This document shows positions 17,372 to 24,047 of a stretch of 48,136 nucleotides of DNA, in pieces; position 1 is the first letter of the stretch, and the number at the start of each line of letters is the position of its first letter. A model generated the notes under the pieces. That model had not been told where the DNA came from, did not search any database, and saw only the letters and a program-made list of their open reading frames with translations. The stretch spans positions 1 to 48,136 of the forward strand of contig JAUYOW010000010.1 in the NCBI GenBank assembly GCA_030697825.1, written 5' to 3'. The translations under genes were made by a program, and so were the position numbers. Origin of the DNA: Gemmatimonadales bacterium (GTDB lineage: Bacteria > Gemmatimonadota > Gemmatimonadetes > Gemmatimonadales > JACORV01).

Positions 17372-19414
17372 CTACCGAAAGATGCGTCGGATCCGGTCGC
17401 CCTGCACAACCTGGTCGAGGACGCCGTAGCCGTCGGTCAGGTGACCGAAGACGGAGTACCCGCCATCGAGGTGCGGCTGTGGGGAGTGAGTGAGGAAGTA
17501 CTGGGAGCTGCCGGTGTCGGGGCCGGACAGGGCCATCCCCACCGCTCCGCGGTCGTAGCGCCTGCGATTGATCTCGTCCCTGATCACGATACCGGAGCCG
17601 CCGCTGCCGTCGCCTCGAGAGTCGCCATCCTGGATCACGAAGTTCGGGACGACCCTGTGCCAGCGCCCGTTGTCGAAGAACCGCCGGTCCACCAGCCGCA
17701 GGAAGTTGTCCACCGTCAGCGGCGCGTCGTAGCCGAAGAGGGCCACGACGATGCTGCCCCGGTCCATCTCGATCGTCACCCTCATCGCCCCGCCACCCGA
17801 GCGCAGGATGTAGCGCCGGGCTATCTCGCGGTAATCCTCGACGCTCCTGCCGGTCTCGATGGGCAGGACGTCGCCCCAGTAGCGCGCGTGCGTCTCCTCG
17901 CCGAACCGCTCGGCGACGGCGCGCCGGACCAGGTAGTCGGCGCTGCGGGGCACCGACGCGAGGAAGCTCCGCTCGACCGCGGCGCGGCTCTCCGCCCCGC
18001 CCTGCGCCAGCTGCCAGAGCGCATTCACGGCGGCCAGGCGCGCATCGTTCAGCTCATCATGTTCCGCCGCCCGGTACGCGGTGACGAGGGCGGGAAGCGA
18101 CGCGAGGCTTGCCTCGCGGCCCAGGATGTCGGTCGCCGCGGAGCGCACCCCCACGTCCGGGTCGGTCAGCTTCGCGCGCGCCGCCACGGCCACCGCCGGG
18201 TCTCGCTGCTCGCCCCCCTGCCCCAGCGCGCCCAGCGCCGTCGCTACCACGCGCGGATCGGCATCGTTGAGGAGCTCGGTGAGCAGCGCGCGTGCGGCCG
18301 GCGTACCGACCGCACCGAGCATCTCGGCGAATGCCGCGCGGTTGCGCCAGTCCTGGTCGGAGCGCCAGGCTCTGCCGACCGAGAGCGCCGTCTCCGGGGC
18401 CGCCTGCGCCAGGCCGAGGAGGATGGCGCGCTTCAGCGCGAAATTGGGCGCCGGCCCGAACCGCTCCCGCAACACCGTGATGGCGCGCGAGCCGCCGAGG
18501 GTTCCCAGGGTCGCGGCCGCCTGAACGGGAACGTTGGGGTCGCGATCCACGAGCCGGCCGCCGGCCACGCTCGCCAGGCCCGAGTCGCGGAAGGTGGCGA
18601 GCGAACGCAGGGCGTTGATGCGCACCTGGCTGTTCTCGTCACCGACCAGCGCCCTCACGCGCCCGACGAAAACGTCGCGCGCCAAGCCGGCGGAATCCGC
18701 GATGGCGGCCGTCAGGCCGCGCGCGGCGTAGCTGCGCGTCAGCGGCTGGGAGTCGGTCGCCGCTTCGAGGAACGCCGCGGCGGCGGCGGGCAGGCGAAGC
18801 CGGGAGGCACTGTACGCGGCGTTCTGGCGAAAGGCGCCCCGGCTGGTCCTCACGTATTCGGCGAGCCGCGGGGCGATCGGGGAGTCGCGGCCCAAACGCC
18901 AGGCTTCGAGGAGCACGACCGCGGTGGCGCGATCGCCCGCGGGCCGGTCGGGGGGGTGACGCTGCAACAGACGCTCGAGCGCGCGAGTGGCGTCTTCGCC
19001 GCCGATCTTCGCCAGCGCGGTCACGACCTCGGCTTCGAAGTCGCCGCCCTCCACCGGGGCGAAGGCTTCCACGAGACGGGAGAGCGCCGGGACAGCAGCC
19101 GGGTCCCCCAACTCTCCCAGCGCGAAGGCTGCCTCGGCGCGGACGCCGGTGTCACGGTCCGCGAGCAGCGGGATCAGGATGGGCGTGGCGCCACGGTCGC
19201 CGATGCGGCCCAAGGCCATCGCCGCGCGGACTCGCACTACCGAGTCCGGGCTCTGGGCCGCGCGGCGAAGGGTGGCGGCGTCGAACTCGCGCCGGTCCTC
19301 GAGCGCGAGGATCTGGGCCAGATCGCCGACCGTGGTCTGGTCCTGCGCGAGCGCCGGCGCGGCGCACGCCACCCCGAGGAGGGCCATCACCATCAGAGAG
19401 TCGGCCCTACGCAT
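17372..19414 (-). CDS. HEAT-repeat protein with C-terminal cyclophilin domain
   Basis: A 680-residue exported protein. The signal sequence is at 1-24 (LLGVACAAPALAQ; either signal peptidase I or a lipobox-like LGVAC). About 480 residues of HEAT repeats (VRVRAAMALGRIGD, VRAEAAFALGELGD and so on) are followed by a cyclophilin-type prolyl isomerase domain: RWHRVVPNFVIQDGD (R, F and Q of the active site kept), GSSQYFLTHSPQPHLDGGYSVFG. A periplasmic folding factor with a scaffold is the likely role. Start ATG 19414 preferred over the GTG one codon earlier. It overlaps the thioesterase gene end and leads into the barrel gene. Confidence 0.9.
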   Translation of the reverse strand: MRRADSLMVMALLGVACAAPALAQDQTTVGDLAQILALEDRREFDAATLRRAAQSPDSVVRVRAAMALGRIGDRGATPILIPLLADRDTGVRAEAAFALGELGDPAAVPALSRLVEAFAPVEGGDFEAEVVTALAKIGGEDATRALERLLQRHPPDRPAGDRATAVVLLEAWRLGRDSPIAPRLAEYVRTSRGAFRQNAAYSASRLRLPAAAAAFLEAATDSQPLTRSYAARGLTAAIADSAGLARDVFVGRVRALVGDENSQVRINALRSLATFRDSGLASVAGGRLVDRDPNVPVQAAATLGTLGGSRAITVLRERFGPAPNFALKRAILLGLAQAAPETALSVGRAWRSDQDWRNRAAFAEMLGAVGTPAARALLTELLNDADPRVVATALGALGQGGEQRDPAVAVAARAKLTDPDVGVRSAATDILGREASLASLPALVTAYRAAEHDELNDARLAAVNALWQLAQGGAESRAAVERSFLASVPRSADYLVRRAVAERFGEETHARYWGDVLPIETGRSVEDYREIARRYILRSGGGAMRVTIEMDRGSIVVALFGYDAPLTVDNFLRLVDRRFFDNGRWHRVVPNFVIQDGDSRGDGSGGSGIVIRDEINRRRYDRGAVGMALSGPDTGSSQYFLTHSPQPHLDGGYSVFGHLTDGYGVLDQVVQGDRIRRIFR

Positions 19415-19835
19415 CACGCCCCAGAACTCCGCGCATCAGGATGAGCAGGTCGTCGGGGAGCCGCGTCGGACGGCCGGTCGGACCGATGGAAACGAGCGCC
19501 GTCATCGCGGTAGCGAGCAGCGCGCCGTCGTCGGCGCGCTCCATACGATACTCGAAGTTGACGCGGCGGGAACCGACATCGGTGACCCAGCTCGTGACTC
19601 GCACCAGGTCGTCGTACCTGGCCGGCTTGAGGAAGCGGAGGCTCACTTCGGCCACCGCCAGAAGGAAGCCTCGGTCCTCGAGATCCCGATACCTGACCCC
19701 GTGACGACGCAGATGTTCCGTACGGCCGATGTCGCACCAGTCGAGGTAGTGCGCGTGGTAGGCGAAGCCCATCCGGTCGGCTTCGCCGTAGCGCACCCGA
19801 ACTTCGACCGACGTGGAGAGGGCTGGTCCCGTCAC
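19407..19835 (-). CDS. YbgC/FadM-type hotdog acyl-CoA thioesterase
   Basis: A 142-residue single hotdog domain. Family signature: VRVRYGEADRMGFAYHAHYLDWCDIGRTE near residues 9-37, including the Asp/His region of the active site, then LRRHGVRYRDLEDRGF and RFLKPARYDDLVRV. It hydrolyses an acyl-CoA to acid plus CoA; chain specificity is unreadable. It starts with GTG overlapping the pduL stop (GTGA), so it is coupled to the BMC enzymes. It may act on the same acyl-CoA that PduL uses, or simply be the first gene of the downstream envelope set. Confidence 0.85.
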   Translation of the reverse strand: MTGPALSTSVEVRVRYGEADRMGFAYHAHYLDWCDIGRTEHLRRHGVRYRDLEDRGFLLAVAEVSLRFLKPARYDDLVRVTSWVTDVGSRRVNFEYRMERADDGALLATAMTALVSIGPTGRPTRLPDDLLILMRGVLGRDA

Positions 19836-20896
19836 CTCTCGTCGCGCCAGATGCCGAGGGCCTTGGCGCGGTCGCGGGCCGCGGGCGTGACGAGATAGGG
19901 CCCGCCCGCCGACAGCGTGTCGCCGCGCGCCGAGATCCGCGCGACGTCGCGCTCGGTGAGGAGCGGCCGCTTCCTTCCGGCCGGCGCGCCGCGCGAGGTG
20001 GCCACGATCACCGCCGAGTCCCCCGTCTGCACCTGTGCCGCGTTGGCCTCGTCCAGGTCCAGGTGCAGCTCCGTGGCGTGGTCGGGACCCATGCGCACCA
20101 GGACGTCGTGCAGCGTGACGCGCCGGCCCGCAGGCCCACATTCCATGGCGACCCGGTCGCCGTCGGCCACTCCCAGAGTCTTGGCGTCGGCCGGCGCGGC
20201 GTGCAGATGCCGCTGCGCGACGATCACGCCGCTCGCCAGCATCACCTTGCCCGCCGGCCCCTCGAGCGTGACGCCGCCGCCCGAGTTCTCGAGCTTGCCG
20301 CTCTGCCGGACCGGCGCGGTGACACCGAGGACGTGCCCGTCCGCGGTGGAGATCTCCAGCTGCGTGGCGCCGCGCGCCGGCCCCACGATGCGCACACCCT
20401 CGATCTTCCCTTTCGGGCCCACCACGGCGACGACTTCGGCCGCGGCGTACTGCCCCGGCTGCGAGATGGGCCGCTGGACCATGGGCGCCCTGCCCTTGCC
20501 GAACAGCGCCTCGAAATCGCGGGGCGAGACGTGGAGGTGGCGGTTCGACACGCCGATCTTCACCTCGCGGCGGGTGCGCTGCGTGGAGGCGCGGTCTGCG
20601 CCGGCCTCCGAGCCAGAGGGCAGCGGTGAAGGACCGCGCGCGGCCGCCGCCTGACGGGCCGCCGTCACCATCGCGGGGTACTCGGGCCGGTGACGCGAGG
20701 TCCCCGCGGGCCGGCGCACCGGCGCCACGTCGGGCAGCGTCTGCGCCGCGCCCGACCAGGCGGGCAACATCCCGGGGGTGGGGTCGCCCGGCGGCTCGGG
20801 ACGGGTCGGCGTCGGCAGCCACGTGCCGCCCGCGCCCTTCTCGGCGAGCCTCGTCGCTACCAACTCGACCAGTTTGGCGACTTCGTCTTTCGTCAT
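19832..20896 (-). CDS. pduL: phosphate propanoyl/acyltransferase PduL with long N-terminal encapsulation extension
   Basis: A 354-residue protein, about 140 longer than a typical PduL. Residues 1-20 ([20 protein letters not shown]) form an amphipathic helix of the encapsulation-peptide type. A Pro/Ala-rich linker runs to about 110. The PduL domain follows with both metal-binding HLH motifs (NRHLHVSPRD at 119-127 and QRHLHAAPADA at 229-239). It converts acyl-CoA plus phosphate to acyl-phosphate plus CoA, recycling CoA inside the microcompartment. Start ATG 20896 overlaps the aldehyde dehydrogenase stop by 4 nt (ATGA). Confidence 0.92.
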   Translation of the reverse strand: MTKDEVAKLVELVATRLAEKGAGGTWLPTPTRPEPPGDPTPGMLPAWSGAAQTLPDVAPVRRPAGTSRHRPEYPAMVTAARQAAAARGPSPLPSGSEAGADRASTQRTRREVKIGVSNRHLHVSPRDFEALFGKGRAPMVQRPISQPGQYAAAEVVAVVGPKGKIEGVRIVGPARGATQLEISTADGHVLGVTAPVRQSGKLENSGGGVTLEGPAGKVMLASGVIVAQRHLHAAPADAKTLGVADGDRVAMECGPAGRRVTLHDVLVRMGPDHATELHLDLDEANAAQVQTGDSAVIVATSRGAPAGRKRPLLTERDVARISARGDTLSAGGPYLVTPAARDRAKALGIWRDER

Positions 20897-22419
20897 CCTC
20901 GACCTCTCGATGCGCGATGCTTGGCGAGGAAATCGTCCACCATGACATGGACCTCGGCCGGCGTAAAGGAAGAGGGAGCGGGGAGCGGGGAGCGGTTCCT
21001 TTCGGGCGCACCGACGTCTTGAATCACACCAACGGTACCGCTCCCCGCTCCCCACTCCCCCGGCGCCTTGTACTCCCGAATCTCATACGCCAACCGCTTG
21101 ATGTTGATCAGATGCAGCGGCCCGATGTTGTCCGAAGTGCTGCTGCCCGCCCACGTGCCGGGGCCCAGCGTCATCGCCGGGACGAGGCCGGTCGTGTAAC
21201 CCACTGCGCCCATCGCCGCCATCGTGTTCACCAGGATGCGGAACGCCGGCTTCTCCTCGAAGAACCGCTGGATCACCGGCTCGTCGCGCGAGTGGATGGC
21301 GAGCGAATGGCCGAGCCCGCCGAACTCGAGCAGCTGGATGCTGCGCTCGCAGCAGCGCTCCCAGCCGTCCTCGACGTAGTACCCCAACACCGGCGACAGC
21401 TTCTCGCGCGAGAAGAACTCCTTCGGCCCGACCTCCGTGCACTCGACCACGAGCACCCGCGTATCCGCCGGGACCGTGATGCCCGCCCGCCCCGCGATCA
21501 CCGTCGCTGCCAGCCCGACGATCTCGGCGCTCACGCCACCGGTGCGCGAGTCCTGCATGGCGCGCTGGAGCCTGGCGCGGTCGTCGCCGGTCACGAACAC
21601 GGCGCCGTTCTTCGGCAGCTCGGCCCGCACCTCTGCGTCCACCGGCGCGTCACACACGATGGAGTTCTCGGCCGAGCAGAGGAGGCCGTGGTCGAAGCAC
21701 TTGCCGTTGACGATGTCGCGCACCGCCTTCGGCACGTCGGCGGTGCGCTCGATGATCGCGGGCACGTTCCCGGGACCCACGCCATAGGCCGGCTTGCCCG
21801 AGCTGTAGGCCGCCCGCACCATCGGGTACCCACCGGTCGCGAGGATCATCGCGGTGCGCTTCTGGCGCATCAGCTCCTGCGTCCCCTCGAGCGTCGGGAT
21901 CGTCATCGAGAGGACGAGGTCTTTCGGGGCCCCCGCTCCCACCGCGGCGTCGTGCATGATGCGTGCCGCCTCGTTGATGCACTTCACCGCCCTCGGGTGC
22001 GGCGACATCACGATGGCGTTGCGGCCCTTCACGCTGATCAGCGCCTTGTAGATGGCGGTGGAGGTCGGGTTGGTGGTGGGGATGAGCGCCGCGACGACGC
22101 CCATCGGTACGGCCATCTCCTTCACCTTGAGCTCGGGGATCTCGCGGATCACGCCTACCGTCTTGAGCGGCCGGATGTACTTGAGGACGTCATCGGCGCC
22201 GAACTTGTTCTTGAGGACCTTGTCCTCGTAGCGCCCCATGCCCGTCTCGTCCACGGCCAGGCGCGCCAGCGGCTCGGCGGAGGCGGAGGCCGCGCGGGCC
22301 ATCGCTTCTACGACGCGGTCGGTCTCTTCCTGGGTGGCGTGCGCGAAGGCCTGCTGCGCGGCGTGGGCCCGCTCCACCAGGTCCCGGGCTTCCTGGACCG
22401 ACGCGAGGTCCTTGTCCAC
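20893..22419 (-). CDS. CoA-acylating aldehyde dehydrogenase of a bacterial microcompartment
   Basis: A 508-residue protein of the AdhE/EutE/PduP-type acylating branch: [36 protein letters not shown], and catalytic Cys248 in [11 protein letters not shown]. It oxidises an aldehyde to acyl-CoA with NAD and CoA. Residues 483-508 ([20 protein letters not shown]) form a C-terminal encapsulation peptide. Residues about 454-482, the linker before it, are encoded by a palindromic dispersed repeat (20974-21061). Start is GTG 22419, 19 nt after the preceding shell gene. The substrate aldehyde is not indicated, as no signature enzyme is present. Confidence 0.92.
20974..21061. repeat. palindromic dispersed repeat, copy 1 (inside the aldehyde dehydrogenase gene)
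   Basis: The left arm GGGAGCGGGGAGCGGG... (20974-20999) and an inverted right arm (21034-21061) flank a loop containing GCGCACCGACG. A related copy lies at 45425-45492 with the same arm unit GGGAGC and a loop containing GCGCACCG. Here it keeps the reading frame and adds about 29 residues to the enzyme. Confidence 0.85.
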
Positions 22420-22437
22420 GGTACCGGGCCGCGCTCG

Positions 22438-22899
22438 CTAGGTGGAGTGGCCGAGGGCGCGGAAGTGCGCGAGCAGCTCTTCGCGGTTGGCGATGGAGAG
22501 CTCGCGCCCCTTGAGCGGGAAGTCGGGCATCTGGCGGGCGCGATGGCGGAGATCCACGACCTTCATCTCAGCGAGCGGGACATCGCCTCTCGCGGGATTG
22601 CCGGCGCTGCCCTCCTCGGCGGCGTCGGACATGAGCTCGAGGCCCGGATACGGACGCGGGATGACGTGCACGGACACCAACTGGCCCACCTTGCTGGCAG
22701 CGGCCGCGCCGGCGTCCACCGCCGCTTTCACGGAGGCGACGTCGCCGGAGAAAAGGACGGTGATAAGGGCGGGATCGGTCCTCTCGGTACCCAGCAGCTT
22801 GACCGGCGCCGCCTTCACGCCCGCGTCAGCCGCTTCGATCGCCCCCACCAGCCCCCTGGTCTCGATCAGGCCGAGGGCCTGTTCGGTCCAGGACGACAT
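22438..22899 (-). CDS. BMC-H shell protein with C-terminal extension and unusual pore loop
   Basis: A 153-residue protein. The BMC domain (Pfam BMC, residues about 5-90) starts [24 protein letters not shown] and includes the [14 protein letters not shown] edge strand. The pore-loop position reads TERTDPALITV rather than the usual KxGSGxVTV, so the central pore should differ. A 60-residue extension follows, ending MPDFPLKGRELSIANREELLAHFRAL, a helical motif seen on some shell proteins. It lies 10 nt downstream of the first shell gene. Forms hexamers in the shell facet. Confidence 0.9.
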   Translation of the reverse strand: MSSWTEQALGLIETRGLVGAIEAADAGVKAAPVKLLGTERTDPALITVLFSGDVASVKAAVDAGAAAASKVGQLVSVHVIPRPYPGLELMSDAAEEGSAGNPARGDVPLAEMKVVDLRHRARQMPDFPLKGRELSIANREELLAHFRALGHST

Positions 22900-22909
22900 G
22901 CCCGGGCTC

Positions 22910-23188
22910 CTACACGCCCTTCGGGAGGATGAGCTCGATGTCCGCGTGAGGCCGCGGGATGACGTGGACCGACACCAGCTCGCCGACGCGCTCGGCGGCC
23001 GCGGCACCGGCGTCCGTGGCGGCCTTCACCGCGCCCACGTCGCCGCGCACCATGACGGTGACGTAACCGCCGCCCACCTTCTCCTTGCCGACGAGCTTCA
23101 CGTTCGCGGCCTTGACCATGGCGTCCGCGGCCTCGATCGCGCCGACGAGGCCCTTGGTTTCGATCATGCCGAGCGCTTCAAGTGGCAT
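22910..23188 (-). CDS. BMC-H hexameric shell protein (PduA/EutM/CcmK type)
   Basis: A 92-residue single BMC domain: [31 protein letters not shown], pore loop [29 protein letters not shown] and [14 protein letters not shown]. This is the canonical major shell hexamer. Start ATG 23188 has GGAGGA 4 nt upstream, the strongest ribosome site of the operon, matching a high-copy shell component. First gene of the operon, behind the promoter at 23229-23257. Confidence 0.97.
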
Positions 23189-23306: not shown

Positions 23307-24047
23307 GTGAGCGGCGAACGCGTGGTTGTGGTGGGCGATGCGCACCTGGGGTCGGCCAACATCCGGGACGAGGAAGCGTTCCACGAGCTCCTCGACGCCG
23401 TGCCCTCGCTCGGCGACCGGCTGCTCGTCATGGGAGACCTCTTCGACTTCTGGTTCGAGTACCGGGCCGTTATCCCCCGCCGTCCCTTCAAGACCCTCAC
23501 CAAGCTGGCCGTCCTGGCCGAGAAGGGGGTGCGGGTGGAGATGTTCGGGGGGAACCATGACCGCTGGGGAGGGACGTTTTGGGGGGAGGACCTCAAGATC
23601 CCGTTCCACGCCGAAGGCACGGACCTGGTGATCGCCGGCCGGACGGCCCACGTGGCCCACGGCGACGGGCTGGCCGAGCAGACTCTGGGGGGGAAGCTGC
23701 TCCACTGGATCACCCGGAGCCGGTTCACGATCGGCGCCTTCAAAGCGCTGCACCCCGACTTCGGCTTCAAGCTCGCCGACCGGCTCTCCGGCGGCCTGGC
23801 GGAGGGCAACAAGTCGCCCGAGGCGATTGACGCGGCGGCGGCAGCTCAGGAGACCTGGGCCCGCGCGCTGATGGACAGCCGCCCCGACCTGGGATTGGTC
23901 GTTCTCGCCCACACGCACCGGCAGCGGCTGCTGGAGGTGGCGCCGGGTAGGTTCTATCTCAACGCCGGCCAGTGGATGGTGGATCGCGCGTACGCCGTGG
24001 TCGGGCCGGAGACCATTACCCCGCTGCGCTGGCCCGCGCGCCCGTAG
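23307..24047 (+). CDS. LpxH-like UDP-2,3-diacylglucosamine hydrolase / metallophosphoesterase
   Basis: A 246-residue calcineurin-type phosphoesterase with the full metal set: VGDAHLGSANI (D/H), GDLFDFWFEYRAV, GGNHDRWGG (GNHD), HGDGLAEQ and AHTHRQRL (GHxH). The DFWFEY segment is typical of LpxH and relatives, which remove UMP from UDP-diacylglucosamine in lipid A synthesis. Start GTG 23307; an ATG 8 nt earlier is out of frame. A 48-bp piece of this gene (23810-23857) is repeated at 28027-28074. Confidence 0.82.
   Translation: MSGERVVVVGDAHLGSANIRDEEAFHELLDAVPSLGDRLLVMGDLFDFWFEYRAVIPRRPFKTLTKLAVLAEKGVRVEMFGGNHDRWGGTFWGEDLKIPFHAEGTDLVIAGRTAHVAHGDGLAEQTLGGKLLHWITRSRFTIGAFKALHPDFGFKLADRLSGGLAEGNKSPEAIDAAAAAQETWARALMDSRPDLGLVVLAHTHRQRLLEVAPGRFYLNAGQWMVDRAYAVVGPETITPLRWPARP
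23810..23857 (+). repeat. 48-bp direct repeat, left copy (within the LpxH-like gene)
   Basis: It matches 28027-28074 with 2 mismatches in 48 positions. Here it encodes KSPEAIDAAAAAQET in frame, so this copy is the original. Together the copies bracket the TRAP transporter operon. Confidence 0.9.

What the first reader, a model, noticed from the sequence alone, without database searches (positions are those of the whole stretch)
19407..23188. Minimal microcompartment operon with an acyl-CoA thioesterase, in line with outer-membrane biogenesis genes
The sequence shows two BMC-H shell genes, an acylating aldehyde dehydrogenase, PduL and a hotdog thioesterase in tight order, coupled by overlapping ends. 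No BMC-P vertex protein, BMC-T, alcohol dehydrogenase, cofactor-recycling gene or aldehyde-producing signature enzyme is in the 48-kb window. Known metabolosomes need a pentamer and a signature enzyme, so this is either a satellite locus served by genes elsewhere or a reduced system. A thioesterase beside PduL would compete for acyl-CoA, giving free acid instead of acyl-phosphate. The run continues without a gap into HEAT-cyclophilin, barrel and LptE genes. Function is inference.
Basis: partly seen in the sequence, partly recalled or inferred. Interest (0 to 1): 0.8.

Follow-up and report, generated by a model that had tools for sequence, protein, structure and literature searches.

The report
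Scattered microcompartment for deoxyribose breakdown
The genes at this spot are one piece of a bacterial protein organelle whose other pieces lie elsewhere in the same genome, and the whole set most likely breaks down the sugar of DNA while keeping its toxic by-product acetaldehyde shut inside.

Summary
The observed genes are real: BMC-H1, BMC-H2, an acetaldehyde dehydrogenase, PduL and a YbgC/FadM thioesterase in one run. It is a satellite. The same genome (probably Gemmatimonadota) holds three BMC-P genes, a deoxyribose-phosphate aldolase (DeoC) with an encapsulation-type peptide beside two of them, and a modified RpiB, all on other contigs. Seven relatives show the same four-locus split, two more in part. 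The thioesterase is a bystander: in most microcompartment-free relatives examined it sits directly beside lpxH, an empty site. Such relatives often carry a different, untargeted DeoC next to a tandem aldehyde dehydrogenase, in some cases in the very slots that hold the microcompartment genes here. This points to deoxyribose-5-phosphate → glyceraldehyde-3-phosphate + acetaldehyde → acetyl-CoA → acetyl-phosphate. DeoC plus RpiB are published hallmarks of SPU microcompartments; the scattered layout matches 'FRAG' ones, published (also from Gemmatimonadetes) as lacking an obvious aldehyde-producing enzyme. PduL and RpiB share a module related to the shell-binding part of EutQ. Unsolved: fate of acetyl-phosphate (no acetate kinase found) and NAD+ recycling. 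Verdict: new variant of a known kind.

The parts
22910..23188 (-). BMC-H1, canonical hexameric shell protein (92 aa), pore motif GGG (motif by comparison with PduA, recalled)
   Evidence: PF00936 105 bits; 9 homologues incl. this one read side by side
22438..22899 (-). BMC-H2, second hexameric shell protein (153 aa), DPA (here) or mostly DAG (relatives) at the pore position
   Evidence: PF00936 93 bits; alignment A1 of 9 sequences, 56-60% identity to the window's; AF2 mean pLDDT 84, pTM 0.54; best PDB match EutM
22438..22578 (-). C-terminal extension of BMC-H2, predicted small three-helix domain, present in all 9 aligned homologues; function unknown
   Evidence: no Pfam or NCBIfam match; no match to E. 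coli EutK
20893..22419 (-). Acetylating acetaldehyde dehydrogenase (EutE-like) with a C-terminal helix that looks like an encapsulation peptide (...[16 protein letters not shown]...)
   Evidence: TIGR02518 578 bits, best model but below its 620 cut-off; Cys248 (catalytic by recall) invariant in 9; similar tail by eye in 9 of 9, not matched by the PduL-peptide profile
19832..20896 (-). PduL phosphotransacylase (354 aa)
   Evidence: PF06130 210 bits, NF011652 217 bits over cut-off 209; only PF06130 match in the genome
20837..20896 (-). N-terminal encapsulation-type peptide of PduL ([20 protein letters not shown])
   Evidence: same kind of start in 9 of 9 homologues (this one included) whose start is on the contig
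19832..19972 (-). C-terminal EutQ-N-like module of PduL (LLTERDV...VTPAARDRAKALGI), shared with the N-terminus of the BMC-type RpiB
   Evidence: profile of RpiB N-termini finds 10 of 10 PduL C-termini and E. coli EutQ residues 3-44 (i-E 1.9e-5); the PduL-only profile finds EutQ at 0.011
19407..19835 (-). YbgC/FadM-family acyl-CoA thioesterase; resident neighbour, not part of the microcompartment
   Evidence: TIGR00051 80 bits over cut-off 69; beside lpxH in relatives without shell genes
17372..19417 (-). HEAT-repeat/cyclophilin protein; resident neighbour
   Evidence: PF13646, PF00160; follows the thioesterase in 10 of 20 loci without shell genes
23307..24047 (+). LpxH-like phosphoesterase, divergent; other edge of the slot that holds the BMC cassette
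   Evidence: NF003743 48 bits, below cut-off 134; start read; beside the thioesterase in relatives without shell genes

Best explanation
The window holds the main piece (facet shell proteins, AldDH, PduL) of a metabolosome whose genes are scattered over four loci. Locus B (C290) has BMC-P1, BMC-P2 and DeoC; locus C (C56) has BMC-P3 behind deoB and cdd; locus D (C319/C320) has a BMC-type RpiB. Inferred working: deoxyribose-5-phosphate from DNA or nucleoside breakdown enters the shell; [quoted passage not shown] AldDH turns acetaldehyde into acetyl-CoA; PduL frees the CoA inside as acetyl-phosphate. In this genome the shell would be built of two BMC-H and three BMC-P, no BMC-T having been found. 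DeoC, PduL and AldDH would be loaded by terminal helices. Shown: gene content, conservation, peptide-like ends of DeoC and PduL, slot exchange. Inferred: enzyme activities, assembly, direction of flux.
For: (1) The missing shell parts are elsewhere: 3 BMC-P. (2) Seven relatives have all four loci, G038 and G084 in part; A and C lie about 105-110 kb apart on one contig in G029, G090, G102, and B and D about 73-127 kb apart on one contig in G015, G029, G081, G102 (positions), so it is no binning artefact. (3) DeoC orthologue (130 bits or more, a cut chosen after seeing the list) in 16 of 17 genomes with a shell gene and 8 of 133 without (Fisher 9e-15, not corrected for shared ancestry). (4) A profile of PduL start peptides, the tested genome left out, finds the DeoC start in 10 of 10 genomes with locus B (score 3.8-15.9; 0-7 of 1000 shuffles as good); the 14 DeoCs of genomes without shells score 0.9 or less or are too short to score; the best of them, G106, is equalled by 41 of 1000 shuffles. 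(5) Of 20 further DeoC loci picked from genomes without shells, 15 hold another DeoC, each with a tandem ALDH next to it; the pair sits in slot B in G043 and G012 and in slot A in G002 and G036, G014 and G048 and by match alone G022. The 17 genomes with shell genes show one DeoC match each. (6) AldDH's best family model is acetylating acetaldehyde dehydrogenase. (7) 15 of 15 BMC-type RpiBs have DGAG[I/V]GS where 4 ordinary ones have CGTG or CGSG, in the split layout as in the phylum's contiguous SPU-like loci.
Against: No acetate kinase in the own genome and in only 1 of 10 split-type genomes, so the fate of acetyl-phosphate is open. NAD+ recycling is unexplained: the own genome has one Fe-ADH match just over the cut-off, partial (positions 4-129 of 168) and on another contig. 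The deoB-cdd run exists without BMC-P3 in genomes without shells, so it is no BMC-specific link. By hydrophobic moment the own DeoC and PduL peptides do not beat shuffles at 5% (0.58, 0.13); 6 of 13 DeoC and 3 of 9 PduL peptides do. The AldDH tail does not match the PduL profile and AldDH scores under its family's cut-off. RpiB's role is unknown. The 98%-complete, 333-contig genome could hide a BMC-T; G104 and G097 have one. Nucleoside phosphorylases were not searched for.
Confidence: 0.86

Rival explanations
1. Satellite of a microcompartment for another substrate (ethanolamine, propanediol or a glycyl-radical substrate), with DeoC only a bystander.
For: AldDH and PduL are most like Eut/Pdu proteins; E. 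coli has its eut genes beside maeB and the RpiB here is followed by a malic enzyme-PTA protein.
Against: DeoC has a start peptide like that of PduL in 10 of 10 genomes with locus B, and relatives without shells do not; DeoC sits next to two BMC-P genes. Eut, Pdu and glycyl-radical signature enzymes were not searched for, so their absence is not shown.
Confidence: 0.06
2. The thioesterase belongs to the microcompartment and hydrolyses acyl-CoA to free acid beside PduL.
For: 4-base overlap with PduL and conserved order in the 8 split-type relatives that reach it; no acetate kinase in the genome, so another way to free acid would be welcome.
Against: It lies within 400 bp of lpxH without any BMC gene in 15 of 20 loci from genomes without shells, a homologue occurs in 134 of 150 genomes, it has no encapsulation-peptide-like stretch, and is of YbgC/FadM type. 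In G050 a quite different BMC locus lies at the same place.
Confidence: 0.05
3. The system runs backwards: acetyl-CoA is reduced to acetaldehyde and DeoC joins it to glyceraldehyde-3-phosphate to make deoxyribose-5-phosphate.
For: DeoC's equilibrium favours synthesis (recalled, no call); no acetate kinase.
Against: PduL, and the replacement pair in relatives whose ALDH is best matched by families that I recall as CoA-independent oxidisers, fit breakdown.
Confidence: 0.03

Closest known systems
SPU (sugar-phosphate utilisation) microcompartments (Axen 2014, PMC4207490; Sutter 2021, PMC8217296)
   Same: DeoC-type aldolase plus RpiB plus AldDH; proposed use on DNA breakdown products; Gemmatimonadetes single cells were among the first in which the type was reported. 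BMC-type RpiBs of both layouts share the DGAG[I/V]GS motif.
   Different: Here the genes are in four loci instead of one; no BMC-T found; AldDH only about 29-40% identical to that of the phylum's contiguous loci; PduL present in the split type and not found in G020, G050, G120, G125, G131.
FRAG microcompartments (Sutter 2021, PMC8217296)
   Same: Shell genes scattered over several places, BMC-P triplet, reported from Gemmatimonadetes, a few with nearby AldDH.
   Different: FRAG were described as without an obvious aldehyde-producing enzyme; here one is found. Sub-type cannot be assigned, since the supplementary data were not read.
HO (Haliangium ochraceum) microcompartments
   Same: [quoted passage not shown] some genomes have a distant DeoC with an EP-like extension (PMC8217296 passages).
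   Different: H. ochraceum has three BMC-T and one BMC-H (PMC4207490 passages); here two BMC-H and no BMC-T found.
Atribacteria RT761 DeoC in a BMC gene cluster (PMC7736352)
   Same: Deoxyribose-phosphate aldolase with an N-terminal extension, linked by its authors to a BMC cluster (passages).
   Different: There the gene lies in the BMC cluster; layout and other parts were not compared.
Eut microcompartment and its linker EutQ (PMC12487888)
   Same: EutE-like AldDH; the module on PduL and RpiB matches EutQ residues 3-44, which cover the H1/H2 part reported to bind the shell.
   Different: Here the module is fused to two enzymes. EutQ H1/H2 is reported to bind the EutM-EutL interface; EutL is a BMC-T (recalled), and none was found here. 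No search for EutQ or ethanolamine enzymes was made in this genome.

Membership tests
SPU microcompartment | DeoC-type aldolase (pfam01791) as cargo | tested here: met
   TIGR00126 254 bits, PF01791 54 bits; start-peptide profile. Encapsulation itself is not shown.
SPU microcompartment | RpiB-type isomerase (pfam02502) | tested here: met
   own genome: one gene broken over the ends of C319 and C320, exact 141-base overlap; N-terminal module and DGAG motif
SPU microcompartment | Aldehyde dehydrogenase | tested here: met
SPU microcompartment | Signature enzymes with BMC-H and BMC-P in one main locus | tested here: not met
   BMC-H on C10, BMC-P on C56 and C290; same split in relatives
FRAG microcompartment | Shell genes in several genomic places | tested here: met
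FRAG microcompartment | BMC-P triplet (one each of two fixed clades plus a third) | tested here: inconclusive
   three BMC-P, two paired and one alone; clades of the published tree not tested
FRAG microcompartment | Shell-protein composition of FRAG1-7 | not testable with these tools
HO microcompartment | BMC-T shell proteins | tested here: not met
   only two single BMC domains found in the genome
EUT microcompartment | Ethanolamine ammonia-lyase EutB/C | not tested
   no search was made

The most novel reading that the evidence does not exclude
In this lineage PduL has taken over the linker role of EutQ: its N-terminal peptide gathers the cargo and its C-terminal EutQ-like module grips the shell, with RpiB carrying a second copy of that grip. 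In addition, the scattered organelle and a free DeoC plus tandem-ALDH pair are alternatives for one another in the same chromosomal slots, a natural exchange between an encapsulated and an unencapsulated form of one pathway. (Lowered from 0.4 on checking: EutQ's reported partner interface includes EutL, a kind of shell protein not found here, and the PduL-only profile matches EutQ weakly.)
Probability: 0.35. Interest if true: 0.78.

Novelty: new variant of a known kind. Interest (0 to 1): 0.64.

Why it matters
Scattered (FRAG) microcompartments were left in print as organelles with no obvious aldehyde source. This gives a concrete substrate for the Gemmatimonadota case, a short parts list (2 BMC-H, 3 BMC-P, DeoC, RpiB, AldDH, PduL) and a natural control: relatives that appear to do the same chemistry without a shell, in some cases from the same chromosomal slots. 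It also shows that gene neighbourhood alone misleads here: the tightly coupled thioesterase is a bystander and the key enzyme is on another contig.

Tried and rejected
Thioesterase as a microcompartment part: rejected. Assembly or binning artefact: rejected, since relatives have pairs of the loci on single contigs and the own RpiB ends overlap exactly. Hydrophobic moment as a test of the peptides: weak (own DeoC 0.58, own PduL 0.13; 6 of 13 DeoC and 3 of 9 PduL under 0.05), so the profile test is used. BMC-H2 extension as a EutK C-terminal domain: no match; no Pfam or NCBIfam match. deoB-cdd as BMC-specific partners of BMC-P3: dropped, since the run exists without BMC-P3 in G043, G066 and G039, and as AlaR-Cdd in G006. 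Acetate kinase as the last step: not found in the own genome. Tree of DeoC (27 rows): EP-less forms fall among EP-bearing ones, which fits loss, but several forks are weak and some branches long, so the order of events is left open.

Papers: PMC8217296, PMC4207490, PMC12487888 and PMC7736352 were seen as passages only; all others as search listings. Nothing seen in searches or in those passages ties the scattered Gemmatimonadetes type to DeoC; Axen 2014 does propose sugar-phosphate use for the contiguous SPU type, Gemmatimonadetes included. The library is open-access papers only.

Rows left out or special: G038 (start cut by its contig) from the PduL peptide profile; the module profile used 11 RpiB rows, leaving out G038 (cut), G097 (ordinary), G020, G050, G131. 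G084's DeoC start is off its contig and its BMC-P pair was not found. G097 has loci B and C but a BMC-T, no PduL and a different AldDH, so it is counted only for DeoC and loci B and C. G104 has an extra BMC-T-like gene on C14. In one search the five loci not within 400 bp are G048, G014, G022 (inserts), G032 (no lpxH seen) and G001 (about 1.1 kb). The 20 loci and the 20 were picked by me from the lists, not at random. Names recalled without a family search: dnaK, MazG, the tetra of slot edges other than those cited; that RpiB's Cys and AldDH's Cys are catalytic is recalled too.


Full report
What is there. The window is a whole contig (C10) of a 3.37-Mb, 333-contig genome, 98% complete, 2.2% contaminated. 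That it is Gemmatimonadota is inferred from a named relative, a Gemmatimonadetes MAG (L172) with the same run lpxH | BMC-H1, BMC-H2, AldDH, PduL, thioesterase.

It is a satellite. The genome shows two BMC domains, both here, and three BMC-P genes elsewhere. Two lie on C290 between a rhomboid gene and a deoxyribose-phosphate aldolase gene (deoC), with dnaK (named by recall) beyond. One lies on C56 behind alanine racemase, phosphopentomutase (deoB) and cytidine deaminase (cdd) genes. A fourth place, C319/C320, has an RpiB gene broken by the assembly; the ends overlap exactly over 141 bases, and a malic enzyme-PTA gene and a PEP carboxykinase gene follow on C320.

Conservation. Of 150 phylum genomes, own included, 15 have a BMC domain and 17 a BMC-P. 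Locus A (window type) was found complete in G015, G029, G040, G081, G090, G102, G104 and in part in G084 and G038 (contig ends); locus B in those seven, G038 and G097; BMC-P3 beside cdd (locus C) in all of these and G084; a BMC-type RpiB (locus D) in the seven, G038 and G084. Pairs of loci lie on one contig in several genomes: A and C in G029, G090, G102; B and D in G015, G029, G081, G102 (positions). Five genomes (G020, G050, G120, G125, G131) instead have SPU-like loci with RpiB, DeoC, BMC-H, BMC-P, another AldDH, BMC-T and a BMC-P pair, in two places in G125 and on two contigs in G131. In G050 that locus lies between lpxH and the thioesterase, and in G131 beside rhomboid-dnaK: the same slots as loci A and B.

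Targeting. PduL begins with an encapsulation-type peptide in 9 of 9 homologues with a visible start, the window's included. A profile of those peptides, leaving out the genome under test, finds the DeoC start in 10 of 10 genomes with locus B (0-7 of 1000 shuffles as good). The 14 DeoCs from genomes without shells (8 orthologues, 6 of other types) score 0.9 or less or are too short to score; the best, G106, is equalled by 41 of 1000 shuffles. The own thioesterase, Cdd and DeoB give nothing comparable. The contiguous-SPU DeoCs have a different-looking start; the profile reaches the 5% level only in G050, at another place. The hydrophobic-moment test is weak: not passed by the own sequences, passed at 5% by 6 of 13 DeoC and 3 of 9 PduL peptides. 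AldDH ends in a similar-looking helix in 9 of 9 by eye, which is not of the PduL-profile kind.

A second module. PduL's last 45 or so residues and the N-terminus of the BMC-type RpiB are one module: a profile of 11 RpiB N-termini finds 10 of 10 PduL C-termini (E 1e-11 to 3e-15 for 1000 sequences) and, among 24 E. coli proteins of the eut region and 40 shuffles of each, EutQ residues 3-44 (i-E 1.9e-5) and EutT's start (5e-4); the best shuffle was 0.25. The profile of PduL C-termini alone finds EutQ only at 0.011. NCBIfam's EutQ model matches one RpiB N-terminus weakly (0.0056) and the own PduL end not at all. In Salmonella, EutQ helices H1/H2 (residues 9-41) bind the shell and H3/H4 the cargo peptides (PMC12487888, passages); [quoted passage not shown] A linker role for PduL, peptide at one end and shell grip at the other, is a reasonable but untested idea.

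The thioesterase is a bystander. A match exists in 134 of 150 genomes. In 20 loci fetched from genomes without shell genes, it lies within 400 bp of divergent lpxH in 15; in three (G014, G022, G048) something is inserted; G032 shows no lpxH and G001 has a 1.1-kb gap (distances between edges of matches). In the shell-free member of the own family, G043, the gap is 83 bp. HEAT-cyclophilin follows in 10 of the 20.

The slot exchange. The insert in G014 and G048 is a different DeoC (TIGR00126 151 bits, cut-off 117) directly followed by an 800-residue tandem aldehyde dehydrogenase whose best models, all under their cut-offs, are families that I recall as CoA-independent. Of 20 further DeoC loci that I picked from genomes without shells, 15 hold this second DeoC and all 15 have the tandem ALDH next to it; four hold an orthologue of the BMC DeoC in slot B (G006, G105, G119, G018), without the peptide, and one (G001) another DeoC. 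The pair sits between the exopolyphosphatase gene and rhomboid-dnaK (slot B) in G043, next to rhomboid in G012, and in slot A in G002 and G036. In the other loci it lies in other places. Two different DeoC-plus-aldehyde-dehydrogenase solutions in the same slots are the strongest hint to function.

Mechanism (inferred). Deoxyribose-5-phosphate is split by DeoC inside the shell; AldDH, best matched by acetylating acetaldehyde dehydrogenase, makes acetyl-CoA; PduL makes acetyl-phosphate and frees CoA. No acetate kinase was found in the own genome and one in 10 split-type genomes, so acetyl-phosphate may be turned back to acetyl-CoA outside by a phosphotransacetylase; a PTA domain is present in the malic enzyme fusion, but its activity is unknown. 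NAD+ recycling is not explained. RpiB of BMC type has Asp where ordinary RpiB has the Cys of CGTG or CGSG, in 15 of 15 BMC-type genes (G000's two fragments counted once; 14 DGAGIGS, 1 DGAGVGS) against Cys in the 4 others read; that this Cys is catalytic is recalled, not tested. The BMC-type RpiB is a second copy in seven relatives and the only RpiB found in G000, G038 and G084.

Relation to the known. DeoC plus RpiB with AldDH define SPU; scattered shell genes with three BMC-P describe FRAG; a BMC-P pair with an aldolase is the published HO satellite (PMC8217296, PMC4207490, passages). A DeoC with N-terminal extension in a BMC cluster was noted in Atribacteria (PMC7736352, passages). The present set has SPU contents in a FRAG layout. 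It fails the one-locus feature of SPU and the BMC-T feature of HO. I therefore call it a new variant, and say that it works like an SPU metabolosome without filing it as one.

Noticed in passing
G000 C319/C320 (L160, L159); L151-L157, L161, L162, L095, L096, L099, L100, L144: All 15 BMC-type RpiBs read carry DGAG[I/V]GS where ordinary RpiB has CGTG or CGSG; the change from Cys to Asp may mark a different substrate or mechanism.
   Followed up: partly
22438-22578: BMC-H2 has a conserved C-terminal three-helix domain (VVELR.LAR...FP.KGR...R.ELL.AFR); similar tails by eye in Rhodothermales, Chlorobiales and unclassified MAGs (L171, L239, L173, L174, L175, L207); no family match.
   Followed up: partly
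L272-L275 (G006, G105, G119, G018): Relatives without shell genes keep an orthologue of the BMC DeoC at slot B without its encapsulation peptide, possibly a remnant after loss of the organelle.
   Followed up: partly
L084 (G104 C14): One split-type genome has an additional BMC-T-like tandem shell gene in a further place.
   Followed up: no
L159 311-4256: The RpiB locus continues into malic enzyme-PTA fusion and PEP carboxykinase genes; in E. coli the eut operon also borders maeB (L257).
   Followed up: no
L166 (G009 C29): In the most distant family (f9) a 5.2-kb contig has three BMC-P and an AldDH with an EP-like start by eye, but no BMC-H was found in that 84%-complete genome.
   Followed up: partly
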